A program made the position numbers and the translations under genes. A stretch of DNA of 64,000 nucleotides from Ophiura sarsii. Its lineage: Eukaryota; Echinodermata; Ophiuroidea; Amphilepidida; Ophiuridae. How positions within the stretch are numbered: position 1 is the first letter of the stretch; each line of letters begins with the position of its first letter. The DNA lies in NCBI GenBank assembly GCA_035610835.1, contig CM069459.1, positions 59,985,817 through 60,049,816 on the forward strand. Reading direction: 5' to 3'. The notes under the pieces are model-generated. The model was given only the letters and a program-made list of their open reading frames with translations. It ran no database searches and was not told the DNA's origin. Of this stretch, positions 5,623-53,956 are shown piece by piece.

Positions 5623-5692
5623 ATCTCAAAGATTAATACAGTGTTCATAGCATAAATAATATGATATTTTCTATTCCCATCTCCTTACACAG

Positions 5693-5790
5693 TGACGATA
5701 CGGGTGTATGGAAGGGTGCTACAGCAGATGGCCATATAGGATTGTTTCATCGTAGCAATACAACACTAGTGGGTAGCAGCGGCGGAGGGA
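5693..5790 (+). pseudogene. TNK2: duplicated SH3-end exon, truncated copy (unit 1)
   Basis: This is a near-identical copy of the exon that begins at 5843: the same acceptor context (polypyrimidine then 'ttacacag') and the same 32 codons, with two differences, both synonymous (GAT/GAC and AAT/AAC). It lacks the basic tail of the intact copy. After GGCGGAGGGAG the text switches to intron sequence and meets a stop within a few codons. A weak donor (A|GTAATC) follows at 5791. Splicing from it to unit 2 or to the linker exon at 8250 would shift the frame, so it is probably a dead or poison exon. Confidence 0.7.
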
Positions 5791-5842
5791 GTAATCTCAA
5801 AGATTAACACAGTGTATTTTCTATTCCCATCTCCTTACACAG

Positions 5843-6001
5843 TGACGATACGGGTGTATGGAAGGGTGCTACAGCAGACGGCCATATAGGATTGTTTCAT
5901 CGTAGCAACACAACACTAGTGGGTAGCAGCGGCGGAGGGAGTAAACTAAGGAGATGGAAGAGCGGGTCAAAAGGTAGCAACAAGGCTGAAAATAGGAAAA
6001 G
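5843..6001 (+). CDS. TNK2: ACK-like kinase: exon with end of SH3 domain and basic tail
   Basis: The acceptor 'ttacacag' is at 5835-5842 and the donor AG|GTAAAT is at 6002. The exon starts with the last base of a codon and ends with two spare bases. The peptide begins DDTGVWKGATADGHIGLF and continues HRSNTTLVG. It fits the second half of an SH3 fold: W(K/R)G, a short loop, (I/V)G(L/P)F, then an Arg and an Asn. Human ACK1 has the comparable VGPFPRN segment before its CRIB. The exon then runs into a strongly basic stretch (KLRRWKSGSKGSNKAENRKR), which could contact acidic membrane lipids; that is inference. The first half of SH3 must be on an upstream exon outside the window. A TTAA-flanked MITE begins about 35 bp after the donor. 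Confidence 0.8.
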
Positions 6002-8249: not shown

Positions 8250-8294
8250 GTTTGGTGGTTCAGACTCGCCAAAATCTCCTCAGAGATCACCAAG
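8250..8294 (+). CDS. TNK2: ACK-like kinase: 45-nt linker exon between SH3 and CRIB
   Basis: A microexon of 45 nt with acceptor 'ttctcgtag' and donor AG|GTCAGT. It starts with one base completing a codon (AG+G = Arg) and ends with AG, which pairs with the first C of the CRIB exon (AGC = Ser). The peptide FGGSDSPKSPQRSP is Ser/Pro-rich with SP sites that could be proline-directed phosphorylation targets. Both phases agree with the exons before and after it, which is the main evidence. Because its length is a multiple of three, it could be skipped without frame loss. Confidence 0.72.
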
Positions 8295-33180: not shown

Positions 33181-33285
33181 CAAACTGACAGCGTTGGATA
33201 TCAGTACACCCTCAGAATACAAGCATGTCTTCCATGTGGGTTATGATGGGAGAGTTAAAGGGGATCCAACATTTGGTGGTGATTA
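33181..33285 (+). CDS. TNK2: ACK-like kinase: CRIB exon, copy 1 (Cdc42/Rac-binding)
   Basis: A 105-nt exon with acceptor 'gaccccgtag' and donor TA|GTAAGTA. The peptide KLTALDISTPSEYKHVFHVG followed by YDGRVKGDPTFGGD contains the CRIB consensus ISxPx(2-4)FxHxxHVG, here I-S-T-P-S-E-Y-K-H-V-F-H-V-G with Tyr for Phe. CRIB motifs bind GTP-loaded Cdc42 or Rac; in ACK this follows SH3, as here. The match to the general consensus is better than in human ACK1. Entry and exit phases agree with the linker exon (AG+C) and with the exon at 35346 (TA+T), and the length is a multiple of three. A stop codon follows if the donor is not used. Confidence 0.86.
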
Positions 33286-33348
33286 GTAAGTATATAGGGA
33301 TACAGTTATGTAGATTTGATCATAGATGCTCCCCTCCCCTCCCTATAG

Positions 33349-33453
33349 CAAGCTGACAGCGTTGGATATCAGTACGCCCTCAGAATACAAGCATGTCTTC
33401 CATGTGGGTTATGATGGAAGAGTTAAAGGGGATCCAACATTTGGTGGTGATTA
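33349..33453 (+). CDS. TNK2: ACK-like kinase: CRIB exon, copy 2 (tandem duplicate)
   Basis: Same length, splice sites and protein as copy 1. The three coding differences are all synonymous (AAA/AAG, ACA/ACG, GGG/GGA). The intervening intron is only 63 bp. Because copy 1 ends in TA and copy 2 begins with C, joining both gives a Tyr and an open frame, so the protein could carry two CRIB motifs. Alternatively the very short spacer may make the copies mutually exclusive. Sequence alone cannot decide. Confidence 0.82.
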
Positions 33454-33509
33454 GTAAGTATAGGGATACAGTTATGTAGATTTGATCATAGATGCTCCCC
33501 TCCCAATAG

Positions 33510-33952
33510 CAAGCTGACAGCGTTGGATATCAGTACGGCCTCAGAAAACAAGGATGACTTCGTGGGTTATGATGGAAGAGTTAAAGGGGATTTTTTATTT
33601 TTTGGTATTATTTATTTGGGCCTTACAACCCTGGATAGCAACAAGAAAGCCTCAATTGAGGCTTATTTCCACTGGGGTCCGTTAGGTGTGTGAACAGGTA
33701 CAGACCGGGATGATCCCCTACTCTTTATGAAAGAGTCTGTAACCTTAAGCGTGCTCGGGTATTGCTCTTCCAAAGCATGGGTCCACCATTTCTACGTGAC
33801 TGCCGAACCACGAGGCAATTAAGACTAAGTACCTTGCCCAAGGATACAAACATGTTGGCGGGGCTAGAACTCACAACCTTTGTATTATGAGTCCTGCATG
33901 CTATCCACTAGACCATACATGCTCTCAACATCTCAACATTTGGTGGCGATTA
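33510..33952 (+). pseudogene. CRIB exon copy 3, mutated and split by a SINE
   Basis: The acceptor and first codons are kept (KLTALDIST), but the core has changed: P to A, Y to N and H to D substitutions, and loss of the HV pair, so it could not bind as a CRIB. At about 33590 it is cut by a ~340-bp insertion. The end of the exon ('caacatttggtgg', then a weakened donor GTAAAT) reappears at 33934-33952. Confidence 0.78.
33590..33933 (-). mobile_element. tRNA-derived SINE inserted in CRIB copy 3
   Basis: Read on the minus strand it starts near 33930 with a tRNA-like head: box A 'tggtctagtggatagc' and box B-like 'ggttgtgagttctagcccc'. A conserved-looking 'ccttgggcaaggtac' core word follows, and the A-rich tail lies at 33590-33604. 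The core word resembles that of V/Deu-type SINEs, from memory. No clear target duplication is left. Confidence 0.7.
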
Positions 33953-34008
33953 GTAAATATAGGGATACAGTTATGTAGATTTAACCACATATGCCCCCTC
34001 CCCAGTAG

Positions 34009-34085
34009 CAAGCTAGCAGTATTGGATTTAATACACCCTCATAATAAAAATCGCTTCGATGAGGGTTAAATGGGATTCAAGGAGA
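34009..34085 (+). pseudogene. CRIB exon copy 4, strongly decayed
   Basis: After a conserved intron end ('ccccagtag') come 'caagctagcagtattggat', 'acaccctca' and 'gatgagggttaaatgggatt', a degraded version of the CRIB exon with several substitutions and frameshifts. It is the fourth unit in the tandem series and has no usable donor. Confidence 0.7.
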
Positions 34086-35345: not shown

Positions 35346-35724
35346 TCGTTCCCTACCGCCAGAAGGCAGCCCTAGTAAGTCATCGGAACAGTGGAGCAGC
35401 GCATCATCAACTGACAGTCGTTCCAACTCCTCCACACCGCATCGATCACCTAGCACAACACCCAGCAAATCACCGACGTTCCCCTCCGTGTCGATACAAC
35501 CTCGAACTCACCCCATGCTCAGTAATGAACCGCCGTGCACCACGTCCAGTCAGCCAGAACTGAGGGCGGGCATACCGGTCGCCAGTCCCCGGGTACGACT
35601 GGCTGATGAGGAGAAGTGGGACTTGGAAGGCAGCTCTTGTAGCTTAGCTGAGGATGATTATAGCGAAGAAAGTGCCGCAAATGTAGAGGGCGCCACAGCA
35701 AAGTCTCCAGATGAAGAGTTATCG
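35346..35724 (+). CDS. TNK2: ACK-like kinase: Ser/Pro-rich exon after CRIB
   Basis: Acceptor 'ttgtttgtacag'; donor TCG|GTAAGA. The first T completes Tyr with the TA of the CRIB exon, and the exon ends on a codon boundary. It encodes 126 residues rich in Ser, Thr and Pro (RSLPPEGSPSKSSEQWSSAS onward) with many SP/TP sites, then an acidic stretch (DEEKWDLEGSSCSLAEDDYS). No folded domain is predicted by eye; it is a linker with likely phosphorylation sites. The antisense 79-codon ORF here is a shadow. Confidence 0.84.
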
Positions 35725-39890: not shown

Positions 39891-41342
39891 TCTCTAGACT
39901 TTGGGTCTCTTCTAGATGACGTAATGACAGCCTGGGATGCAACCAGGACTAGTGTTGGTATAGATCACCCCCAGACACCTGATGGAGATGATGAAAGTCC
40001 ACCTACAGAGGGCGCCGCTAATGGTACTTCGTCAGGACGATCAAGCCCATCCCTGAGCATTGGTGATGACTACTGTTATGGTGCTTCCAACTCAACGCTA
40101 GTTTCCAGCCAGCCACAAGGTATAACAGTAATGGTCGGTAAGGAAGACACGACGTTAGTATCGTCGTCGCCCGAGGGCGCCGGGTCCCTAGATTCCCTGC
40201 CACCGCTTCACAATGCCATCACAAAAGACATGCCATCCAATCCCGTCAAAACTTACAGGAAAGCGCCCTCTAGTGGGCTATCAGATACCAGCAGCGTGAG
40301 CAGTTTCCAGAGCTACCCGTCGATGGATACTACATCATCGATGACGAGAAAGGAGTCGGGGGATGCAGACAGGTTTGCGGGCTTGTCTTCAACAGCGTCC
40401 GATAGTGCTGATGATGCGCGGTCTTCAACTCCGGAGGTCAATGGTTTGAATGGTAATGGTCACATGACAGATCACATGACAGGTTATGTGTCCCCTGAAG
40501 ATAGAATGGATGAGATATTAGATGCTGGTGACTATACAGAATTGGCAGTATCGGACAAAGTGTTTCCTGCCGAGATAGATTCCACTTCGGCAGATATTAG
40601 TTTTAGTTCCGAAGCGCGCTCTCATGCCTCAAAACCCAGTGACGATAGCGATGTTGATGACGATAGGCCTAGGCTTAATACACGCAATAATGGGCAGCGA
40701 GACGAGGCTAATGAACGTTTAGCTGGCGGTGATAACACAAAACCTCGTAGCCCATCAACCACCAAAAGTCCACGTAGACCAAAGGGTCCCCCGCCAAAGA
40801 CTCCCCCTGTAAAACCCCTGGCAAAACCAAAGGGTCCCCCACCCCCTGTCCCACCAGCACCGTGGATGAAGAAACCCGACATTTCACCCAAACCTAAAAA
40901 ACGTGAATATGCTCGAAAAGCAGAGGAGGAAGACTTCAGCTTTTCTACACTTCGCCAAAAATTTCTAAGTGGAAATAAACCCTCCTCAGAGACCACCCCT
41001 CGTGCCACGGTGGCTCGTTCCGGTTCATACAAGGAATCAATCAATGTGACAGCCTCTGTGGGACGTTCCAATTCCACTGGCGGGTACGATTCTAGCTCAT
41101 CAGAGCAAGAAGTCAAACTTAGTGAACGGACTATTGAAAACTTGGAGCGAACCATGCCCAAGCGTACCCGAGGAAGAAATAGGCGCCGTAGCTCAGAAGA
41201 AGCTAGCGAATCGGATCACAGCAGCATGGTATCCTCAAGAGCCTCTGAAGGTGACAGCTCAGCCGATGAGGGCGCTGCTAGTAAAACGACATCTGCGTAT
41301 ACATCTGTTGCCTGTCCTCTACCAGACCTCCCTGAAGATCAG
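39891..41342 (+). CDS. TNK2: ACK-like kinase: main disordered tail exon, 484 codons
   Basis: Acceptor 'tttgctcatttcag'; donor CAG|GTGAGA; phase 0 at both ends. It begins SLDFGSLLDDVMTAWD, a hydrophobic/acidic segment that may correspond to the LIDFG clathrin-binding region of vertebrate ACK1 (inference). Then come long Ser/Asp-rich parts, a YxxM motif (YPSM at 40314-40325), a Pro-rich block (KGPPPKTPPVKPLAKP, then KGPPPPVPPAPW) of SH3-ligand type, DFSFSTLRQKFLSG, and a basic cluster (KRTRGRNRRRSS). No catalytic domain. It is a scaffold for SH3, SH2 or endocytic partners. The antisense 179-codon ORF is a shadow of its biased codons. Confidence 0.9.
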
Positions 41343-50002: not shown

Positions 50003-51059
50003 ACTAACTACTACCCATCAACACACAACCCCCTCCCCCTCCCGCCAAGACAGTCCCCTAAAGCCCCTCCACGACAAGCACAGATCAGCACCGAGTCGTC
50101 ACCAGAGTTGAAGCCTAGATTGGTCAGACAACACAATACACGAGTAGATGATGGCAACACTCCCCACCCACCCCACCTAAGTGTATCCAATGCACGCCAA
50201 CAACGACGGAGTTACTCGTTTGATTCGGGCATTCTGCACAGCACACCCACCCACCCTGAGACGAACTCATTCAGAAAACAAAAGCGGCATTCCATCGACA
50301 TCCTGGACAACGCAGGATCTCACATCACTGCTTCCCCAGAGCAGATACGTGAACTACTTGCTGTCAACAACGATAAATCAGACATGCCATCTAGAACGCC
50401 CCCACCCGTCCCTAAAAGACTCCCGAACCTATTGAAACATTCACAAAGTGAGGATATATCTATGACAACACAGATACCACTACATGGTAAGACCAGAACA
50501 AAGGTCAAAGGGCAAGACTATGAGTTCATGAGCCCTCAAGCAAATTCACATGGGCAACTATCCCCCCTTAATGAACAACAAAATCAAGACTCAGATTCTG
50601 GAGTTGACATGCCACAGTTGCAACATTCTGAACTAACAGTAAAGAACCAATTGGGTTCATCTGATAGTAGTTCAAGCGGCGCATTGAAGTATATGCGCAT
50701 GGGATCTGGATCGCCCGCACTGATCCTTCGAGACATGGATCTCGGCGATGGTAAATTCACCCGGAGCCAAAGTGCCCACAGTATCAATTGGACACGGCAG
50801 CATTCAGATCAGGCGTCGCCATCCCCACCACCACAGAAATACAAATGGGAAGATGTAACCACCGTGGCAAGGTCAAAGTTTAAGCGGGAAGGCGGGGAGA
50901 GGATCAAGGGAAGGCGGACATTGCTGAAGAACTCTCGGATGTCAAGGAGTGTGGATGATCTGTTGTCTGCTGGAAGTAGTGGTGACGATTTTGGAGGTTT
51001 GAAGGAAGCTGAGAGCCTTAGCGATATACTGGCCAGGACATACGCAGCACCAACCTCAG
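50003..51059 (+). CDS. TNK2: ACK-like kinase: proline-rich tail exon (352 codons)
   Basis: The pyrimidine-rich acceptor '...ttaatag' is at 50002; the donor TCAG|GTAAGCC is at 51060. It enters in phase 0 and leaves with one spare G. I extended it 35 codons upstream of the first start-like codon because the frame stays open back to the acceptor. It opens TNYYPSTHNPLPLPPRQSPK, with a classic SH3/WW-type ligand PLPLPPR, and has a second one (RTPPPVPKRLP). It carries two YxxM motifs, YEFM (50519-50530) and YMRM (50690-50701). The C-terminal part is basic (KFKREGGERIKGRRTLLK), then RSVDDLLSAGSSGDDFGGL. Function: docking tail. Confidence 0.88.
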
Positions 51060-51205
51060 GTAAGCCTATATACTGGCCAGGACATATGTAGCACCTCCTT
51101 CATGTAAGCCTATATACTGGCCAGGACATATGTAGCACCAACCTCAGGTAAACCTATATACTGGCCAAGACATAGGTAGCACCACCTTCAGTTAAGCCTA
51201 TAGAG
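51016..51205 (+). repeat. 44-bp tandem repeat made from the exon's donor end
   Basis: The last ~35 bp of the exon plus its donor and first intron bases ('tatactggccaggacata...gtaagcctata') are repeated four times with 44, 44 and 43-bp spacing. Donor positions are GT at 51060, 51104 and 51148; the fourth reads 'cagttaagcc'. Only the first donor is productive, because the intronic repeats bring an in-frame TAG. Confidence 0.88.
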
Positions 51206-51671: not shown

Positions 51672-52516
51672 GGCATTCTCCAACCTCCACTACGACAGAT
51701 CAATCCAGCATATACCTAACGCCTCGCAGTTGGAAAACCTACCAGTCTACTACACCATCAGGTGAATCCAATCTAACACACCCATCTGCTCCTCCAGCTG
51801 CATCCGTTGTAGTTCATCCATCTGCTCCTCCTCCCCCTCCCCACGCAGAGCCACTCCCTCCTGTCCCCCCTCAAAGGCATCATCTCATCATGACATCGCC
51901 AAACAAAGATCCGGGTTATATCGACATGAGGTCACCGGAGATTGGTCCTAGTGCTCCTTTCAGACAGGGGATGAATGTGGAGACTTCACAGAGACCTATC
52001 AGTGCAGCGTACATCTCGGCTGATGTGTATTCAGAGCCAAGAACTTACTCCAGGACAATTCCAGAGGAAGACGAACCACTAGCATCAGAGATCACTCCGA
52101 GTGGAGGGGATAAGCATATCTCTATTAGTTTGCAATCAAAACAGAGACAATCTTCTAAGACGAGTCTGTTTAAGGAAGAACATATTTTACCGAAGCAAGA
52201 AACGCACGTATACAGCACGCCACCTGTTGAGCTAGAGGGTTACAATACAGTACCTTTGAGACATAAGTCATCAAGGAGTTCCAACAAAGAACACCATGTC
52301 ATTCCTAACAGACCAGTGTCTCAGACTATACCAGTGCGCACAGAGAGAGCCGTCAGTCTAACCAAGAGCCTTAGCCAGGAGATTCCCCTGCCCAAAAGGA
52401 ATCAACATGTGAGGTTTAATACTGATGAGGGCGCTAGCACCTATGAATCAAGTGAGTCGGTGGAGATGTCAAGAAGCGTTGAAGCAAGGCGACTGAAAGA
52501 ACTACTACCAGATAAG
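51672..52516 (+). CDS. TNK2: ACK-like kinase: second Pro-rich tail exon (~282 codons)
   Basis: Acceptor 'ttgatatttcag' then GG CAT, which joins the spare G as GGG (Gly); donor AAG|GTAAAT in phase 0. It encodes HSPTSTTTDQSSIYLTPRSW, then two similar HPSAPP segments (THPSAPPAAS, VHPSAPPPPPH) and an SH3 ligand PLPPVPPQR. One YxxM motif, YIDM, is at 51917-51928, with further tyrosines in signalling-like contexts (DVYSEP, HVYSTPP, GYNTVP). The end (MSRSVEARRLKELLPDK) is charged and may be helical. No folded domain is seen. Confidence 0.9.
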
Positions 52517-53749: not shown

Positions 53750-53956
53750 ATCTCTATGAAGTCTTGCCTGGAAGCCTTGCAAAAAGCTGATTGGAACTCC
53801 ACCGTCGCTAAGCAACAGTTGTTGATCCGTCATCTTGCCACGACCCTCAACGTGGAACCCTCAACATGTGAAAGCGCCCTCAGGCAAAGCCGTTGGGATG
53901 TGCAGGAAGCAATCGAGGTCGTCAACTCTGCTACTGATATCAGTGTCTGTTTATAA
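53750..53956 (+). CDS. TNK2: ACK-like kinase: terminal exon with paired UBA-like segment
   Basis: Acceptor 'cattctgtacag'; phase 0; 68 codons and a TAA stop. Residues about 5-32 (SCLEALQKADWNSTVAKQQL) and 45-62 (TCESALRQSRWDVQEAIEVV) each show the UBA-type pattern Cys-x(2-3)-Ala/Leu-Leu, a Trp about 4-5 residues on, then an Ala-containing helix. This lines up by eye with the extreme C-terminus of human ACK1/TNK2, which has two such units with the same Cys and Trp spacing. UBA binds ubiquitin and controls ACK turnover. This exon is the strongest single clue to the family besides SH3-CRIB. Confidence 0.9.
   Translation: MSMKSCLEALQKADWNSTVAKQQLLIRHLATTLNVEPSTCESALRQSRWDVQEAIEVVNSATDISVCL

What the first reader, a model, noticed from the sequence alone, without database searches (positions are those of the whole stretch)
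33181..34085. Four tandem copies of the Cdc42-binding (CRIB) exon of an ACK kinase
Two complete 105-nt CRIB exons, each with good acceptor and donor, are 63 bp apart and differ only at three synonymous positions. A third is mutated and split by a SINE, and a fourth is decayed. Both intact copies keep the same phase in and out, so the transcript could carry one CRIB, either CRIB, or two in series. Two CRIB motifs in one kinase would change Cdc42/Rac avidity and would be unusual for this family. All-synonymous divergence suggests either selection on both copies or recent duplication or conversion.
Basis: partly seen in the sequence, partly recalled or inferred. Interest (0 to 1): 0.9.

Follow-up and report, generated by a model that had tools for sequence, protein, structure and literature searches.

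The report
Duplicated Cdc42-binding exon in ACK kinase
An animal gene for a signalling kinase carries two intact, near-identical copies of the small exon that grips the switch protein Cdc42, plus two damaged ones; it looks like one product of the short tandem duplications seen around this genome, and the protein probably still contains a single grip.

Summary
Copies at 33181-33285 and 33349-33453 are intact 105-nt CRIB exons, 63 nt apart, differing at three synonymous sites; a third is mutated and split by a dispersed repeat, a fourth is decayed. The gene is an ACK-type kinase; the three related (sea urchin) proteins found have one CRIB each. "Two CRIBs in series" is possible (frame open, 1433 aa) but not the likeliest. 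Any usual branch point in the 63-nt intron lies under the ~50-nt steric limit reported for vertebrates, copy 2 has the stronger acceptor, and either copy alone gives the same protein. Single inclusion, silent at protein level, is the simplest expectation; no RNA was available. The duplication is not isolated: 5 of 13 mapped exons of this gene have a nearby direct copy, four of them partial and carrying a splice site, and 3 of 72 myosin exon matches elsewhere in the genome show the same. Tandem-array density at the locus is close to that of 19 random regions. Most likely a recent tandem exon duplication, a new member of a known kind. The splice-site-spanning arrays in several genes are the more interesting lead.

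The parts
33181..33285 (+). CRIB exon copy 1 (105 nt, intact, weaker acceptor)
33286..33348 (+). 63-nt spacer/intron between copies 1 and 2; a 46-nt stretch of it is identical in the spacer after copy 2
33349..33453 (+). CRIB exon copy 2 (105 nt, intact, highest acceptor score of those computed)
33510..33590 (+). CRIB exon copy 3, 5' part, four substitutions and one 3-nt deletion against copy 2
33589..33932 (.). dispersed SINE-like insert splitting copy 3 (limits by eye; no tRNA called by ARAGORN)
33933..33952 (+). end of copy 3 exon, one synonymous substitution, weakened donor (GTAAAT)
34009..34085 (+). CRIB exon copy 4, decayed
5693..5794 (+). partial upstream copy of the SH3-end exon (acceptor plus first ~102 nt); two differences from the full exon in that stretch, both synonymous
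5843..6001 (+). full SH3-end exon (159 nt)
8250..8294 (+). 45-nt exon upstream of the CRIB exons
35346..35724 (+). exon downstream of the CRIB exons
39891..41342 (+). large exon
50054..51059 (+). large exon
51024..51202 (+). 44-nt array of exon 3' end plus donor, 4.1 copies
51672..52516 (+). large exon
53750..53956 (+). last coding exon, UBA-like domain, stop codon TAA at 53954-53956

Best explanation
A short tandem duplication (unit about 160-168 nt), of a kind found at many places in this genome, happened to contain a whole 105-nt CRIB exon with its acceptor and donor. Repeats of it made four copies, of which two stayed intact. Each intact copy has the same phase in and out and encodes the same 35 residues, and the 63-nt intron between them is probably too short to be spliced efficiently, so each mRNA most likely takes one copy (mostly copy 2, which has the better acceptor). 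The ACK protein then keeps one CRIB and the duplication is silent. Shown: the duplication, the identical peptides, open frames, splice-site strings, and tandem copies elsewhere in the gene and in myosin genes. Inferred: the splicing outcome and the silence.
For: Copies, phases and identical peptides. Array density at the locus is close to background: 14 arrays of period 40 or more in 124 kb against 23 in 189.7 kb of 19 random regions (11.3 and 12.1 per 100 kb; at 85% matches or more, 11 and 17, i.e. 8.9 and 9.0). Other exons of the gene have partial tandem copies: two kinase exons (125 nt x2.7, 124 nt x3.7), the SH3-end exon (150 nt x1.9) and the exon ending at 51059 (44 nt x4.1); with CRIB, 5 of 13 mapped exons. 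Same in myosin genes: 5 of the 77 listed matches are partial copies lying next to 3 of the other 72 (65 of 228 candidates were scored), read as DNA with units of 90, 156 and 184 nt. The 63-nt intron puts branch points under the ~50-nt limit. Acceptor of copy 2 stronger. The three sea urchin ACK proteins found have one CRIB motif each.
Against: No RNA data were available. Minimal intron sizes of 61 (fly) and 48 (worm) are quoted, and that of the sea urchin as unknown (PMC2721852, passage), so a 63-nt intron may be spliced. The splice-site matrix was recalled, not trained on this genome, and C-rich tracts may be overvalued. Both CRIB donors score below the other donors, which would also fit partial skipping of the CRIB. 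All three differences being synonymous is somewhat unlikely (P 0.011-0.044) if one copy had long been unused; with the SH3 pair the joint value for 5 of 5 is 0.001-0.005. Exons of this gene are hit a little more often than random segments (5/13 against 75/600 and 84/600, P 0.016 and 0.026; without the CRIB case 4/12, P 0.05 and 0.07; array permutation P 0.014), so chance placement is not certain.
Confidence: 0.6

Rival explanations
1. Both copies are spliced in series and the animal makes an ACK kinase with two CRIB motifs, with higher apparent affinity for Cdc42-GTP or stronger membrane recruitment.
For: Frame stays open through both copies (1433 aa); both donors GTAAGT and both acceptors end in TAG; no non-synonymous difference between the copies; a 63-nt intron is above the minimal size quoted for flies; two WASp CRIBs engineered in tandem pre-localised at the plasma membrane (PMC10234108, passages).
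Against: Any usual branch point lies below the ~50-nt vertebrate limit. No protein with two CRIBs among the relatives found: three sea urchin ACKs, one each.
Confidence: 0.2
2. Only one copy is an exon; the other is a recent pseudo-exon not yet decayed.
For: Copy 1 acceptor scores 4.0, below the 10 others compared; copies 3 and 4 show the fate of unused copies.
Against: 0 of 3 differences between copies 1 and 2 are non-synonymous, whereas 4 of 5 substitutions in copy 3 against copy 2 are (read).
Confidence: 0.12
3. Assembly artefact: two haplotypes of one exon placed in tandem.
For: Copy divergence of 3/105 is of the size of allelic differences in one brittle star (3.22% heterozygosity in Amphiura filiformis, PMC11310086, passages; not shown to be this species).
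Against: Four copies with graded decay, one split by a dispersed repeat; a unit of 168 nt, well within one sequencing read; similar arrays with different periods in other genes. How this assembly was made is not known to me.
Confidence: 0.05
4. A regulated pair of mutually exclusive exons kept because the copies differ in regulation (tissue or stage), not in protein.
For: Different acceptors and upstream tracts.
Against: No expression data; identical peptides remove the usual reason for keeping such pairs.
Confidence: 0.03

Closest known systems
Tandem exon duplication with mutually exclusive splicing (PMC9013439: abstract and passages; PMC9741552: abstract in listing)
   Same: Whole symmetric exon with both splice sites copied in tandem within one gene; phase kept.
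   Different: Here the two intact copies encode identical residues, so exclusive choice would give no protein diversity; splicing not observed.
OGDH exons 4a/4b, mutual exclusion by a branch point too close to the 5' splice site (PMC7969005, passages)
   Same: A short distance between 5' splice site and branch point would block double inclusion.
   Different: There the intron is 118-131 nt in birds and mammals with mapped distant branch points; here the whole intron is 63 nt and no branch point was mapped.
ACK1/TNK2 non-receptor tyrosine kinases (PMC10047419, passages)
   Same: Order kinase, SH3, CRIB, UBA.
   Different: Four CRIB exon copies in the gene; SAM exon and one kinase exon not located here; clathrin-binding and Mig6-homology regions not looked for.
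Intron gain by tandem genomic duplication (PMC4974935, start of abstract in listing)
   Same: Short tandem duplications that copy splice sites.
   Different: Here the arrays sit on exon borders and mostly copy one splice site plus part of the exon; no new intron inside a coding exon is shown.
Coronin7, a protein with two CRIB motifs (PMC4585930, start of abstract in listing)
   Same: More than one CRIB in one protein.
   Different: Those lie in separate WD repeat domains; here a direct tandem of identical units, only if both exons are included.

Membership tests
CRIB/PBD (PF00786) | match over the curated Pfam cut-off | tested here: met
   23.1 bits against cut-off 21.3 for one copy; 42.4 bits, two stretches for both
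CRIB/PBD (PF00786) | consensus ISxPxxxxFxHxxHVG (as quoted in PMC10047419) | tested here: met
   ISTPSEYKHVFHVG: 7 of 8 fixed residues, Y in place of F as in the three sea urchin ACKs; two residues fewer after the P than quoted, but the same spacing as WASP, N-WASP and PAK chains in ungapped alignment
CRIB/PBD (PF00786) | binds Cdc42-GTP | not testable with these tools
   needs a binding assay
ACK kinase | kinase, then SH3, then CRIB in this order | tested here: met
   tblastn with S. purpuratus ACK: kinase exons upstream of the window, SH3, CRIB in order on one strand
ACK kinase | C-terminal UBA | tested here: met
   UBA_4 22.4 bits over its cut-off 21.8 at the last exon; PF00627 UBA at 20 bits stays under its cut-off 22.4
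ACK kinase | N-terminal SAM and complete kinase C-lobe | tested here: inconclusive
Tandem exon duplication | adjacent homologous exons with own splice sites and the same phase | tested here: met
Tandem exon duplication | both copies transcribed and spliced | not testable with these tools
   no RNA data held
Mutually exclusive exons | one and only one copy in each mRNA | not testable with these tools
   only indirect: 63-nt intron against the ~50-nt limit
Intron gain by tandem duplication | new intron within a formerly continuous coding sequence | not tested
   no gene structure of a relative was available to compare intron positions

The most novel reading that the evidence does not exclude
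This genome makes short tandem duplications across exon borders so often that a standing supply of extra splice sites and whole exon copies exists, and the CRIB pair is an exon duplication caught at its first, protein-silent stage, before the copies can diverge into a regulated pair or a two-CRIB kinase.
Probability: 0.3. Interest if true: 0.6.

Novelty: new member of a known kind. Interest (0 to 1): 0.36.

Why it matters
If the two copies are spliced either-or, they show how an exon duplication can persist unseen before the copies differ. If both are included, it would be an ACK kinase with doubled Cdc42 binding. The wider pattern, arrays of exon ends with splice sites in ACK and at three myosin exons, would let one test how often tandem duplication feeds new alternative splicing in a large animal genome, and it warns that automatic annotation may misplace exon ends there.

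Tried and rejected
Selection on both copies as an established fact: rejected as unproven; three synonymous changes give only P 0.011-0.044 and allelic exchange would give the same. ACK-specific hot spot: array density is close to that of 19 random regions; 4 of 14 TRF arrays overlap the 13 mapped exons (TRF missed the CRIB array itself), permutation P 0.014, with some exon limits set by tblastn only; I treat this as weak. Identification as the published Amphiura filiformis assembly: size fits (1.57 Gb), but that assembly has 20 scaffolds over 60 Mb, while here contig 19 has 63 Mb and contig 20 has 60 kb, so the species is left open. A search for proteins with two CRIBs in tandem found only two of the single-CRIB sea urchin proteins (query shortened to 1084 aa). 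A first exon model with one exon end off by one base gave 14 stops and was corrected. Not used: the copy 4 acceptor (wrong coordinate), the acceptors of the third and fourth kinase exons and the donors of the first, third and fourth kinase exons and of the stop-codon exon (exon ends not settled there). Searches of the own genome with the sea urchin ACK protein, the CRIB family and, as a second exon control, the kinesin family did not complete.

Full report
What is there. The + strand of the window holds the 3' part of an ACK-type kinase gene. The exons from the SH3 end onwards join into one open frame of 1398 aa with one CRIB exon and a UBA-like C-terminus, followed by a stop codon. Kinase exons lie up to about 49 kb upstream of the window. 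The only relatives found by protein search were sea urchin ACK proteins: Lytechinus, Diadema and Strongylocentrotus; each has one CRIB motif. The species is not known; the genome has 1.57 Gb in 748 contigs.

The CRIB copies. Copies 1 and 2 (33181-33285 and 33349-33453) are 105 nt each, 63 nt apart, with three third-position differences and identical peptides. The spacers that follow them share 46 identical nucleotides. Copy 3 carries four substitutions, all non-synonymous, and a 3-nt deletion against copy 2 before a roughly 344-nt insert, and one synonymous substitution after it. The insert has partial relatives in 2 of 19 random regions. Copy 4 is decayed. A search of the whole genome with copies 1-2 as DNA found three matches, all in this locus (that tool scores only the best candidates and skips very common words). 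One CRIB exceeds the Pfam cut-off, and two in series give two stretches. The PDB matches of weight are WASP, N-WASP and PAK CRIBs.

What transcripts are possible. Skipping, copy 1, copy 2 and both copies all stay in frame: 1363, 1398, 1398 and 1433 aa. The copy 1 and copy 2 proteins are identical. Donors are the same and score below the other donors of the gene; the acceptor of copy 2 is much more pyrimidine-rich than that of copy 1 (matrix from recall). The 63-nt intron leaves at most about 48 nt between the 5' splice site and any branch point 15 nt or more from the 3' splice site; a plausible one (TTGAT, my reading) lies 34 nt in. In vertebrates a limit near 50 nt is reported to block simultaneous assembly (PMC7969005, passages). 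Minimal introns of 92, 61 and 48 are quoted for human, fly and worm, and that of the sea urchin as unknown (PMC2721852, passage). So single inclusion is the likelier outcome, but this is inference.

How it arose. The duplication is one of many. Within 124 kb of this locus TRF finds 14 arrays of period 40 or more, 11.3 per 100 kb, against 23 in 189.7 kb of random sequence, 12.1 per 100 kb. Five of 13 mapped exons of the gene have a direct copy of at least 30 nt within 1.2 kb: two kinase exons, SH3-end, CRIB, and the exon ending at 51059. Random segments of the same lengths have one in 75 of 600 (random regions) and 84 of 600 (this locus); P is 0.016 and 0.026, and 0.05 and 0.07 when the CRIB exon, which was chosen for being duplicated, is left out. 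The copies are partial except at the CRIB: acceptor plus exon start (second kinase exon, SH3-end), or exon end plus donor (first kinase exon, whose second extra copy is cut before the donor; exon ending at 51059). The SH3-end copy differs at two sites, both synonymous, over the roughly 102 nt that it shares with the exon.

Other genes. A search with the myosin head family listed 77 matches (65 of 228 candidates scored); five of them are partial copies next to 3 of the other 72. Read as DNA, these are arrays of exon end plus following intron with units of 90 nt (6.4 copies within the fetched stretch, 99% matches, each with GTAAGT), 156 nt (2.4) and 184 nt (3.2). So tandem duplications across exon borders occur in unrelated genes of this genome. 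This is a sample of one family with a search that misses short copies; it is not a genome-wide rate.

Selection or recency. By chance three of three changes would be synonymous with P 0.011-0.044, two of two in the SH3 pair with 0.07-0.11, all five with 0.001-0.005. This fits constraint on both copies, but equally an unequal exchange between alleles already filtered by selection. I cannot separate these.

Verdict. A real, recent tandem duplication of a whole CRIB exon, most likely silent in the protein; a new member of the known kind 'tandem exon duplication'. I saw no report of this case in the listings of the paper searches for ACK1/TNK2 with CRIB, echinoderm and exon (8 of 8 papers listed), exon duplication with CRIB domain terms (20 of 76), exon duplication with echinoderm terms (10 of 1,078) and ACK with duplicated exon (10 of 90). 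These cover open-licence papers and mostly the top of each list, so absence from print is not shown.

Noticed in passing
L005 617-1020 and 1555-2134 (upstream of the window): Two kinase exons of the same gene have partial tandem copies: exon end plus donor, period 125 nt x2.7 at 95%; acceptor plus exon start, period 124 nt x3.7 at 97%.
   Followed up: partly
window 5665-5944: The SH3-end exon has a partial upstream copy (150-nt unit, 98%), with two synonymous differences over about 102 shared exon nucleotides.
   Followed up: partly
window 51024-51202: 44-nt array, 4.1 copies, of an exon 3' end with its donor site.
   Followed up: partly
L029, L030, L031 (contigs C16, C15, C4): Myosin-head exons with tandem copies of the exon end and following intron start; in L029 6.4 copies of 90 nt at 99% run to the end of the fetched stretch, in one open frame.
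   Followed up: partly
between the fourth kinase exon (about -35570 in window coordinates) and the SH3 start exon (-7549): The exon for the end of the kinase C-lobe (sea urchin residues about 327-376) was not found by low-stringency tblastn, though the stretch holds no N.
   Followed up: partly
G000 contig C4 and others: All but 6 of the 150 listed PF07714 matches run over nearly the whole kinase profile (one starts at position 46) in one frame, many clustered on C4: a large set of apparently intronless kinase genes or retrocopies (147 of 2198 candidates scored).
   Followed up: no
window 33538-33557: The four substitutions of copy 3 against copy 2 before the insert are all C to G or T to A, i.e. 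to the complementary base; may be chance.
   Followed up: no
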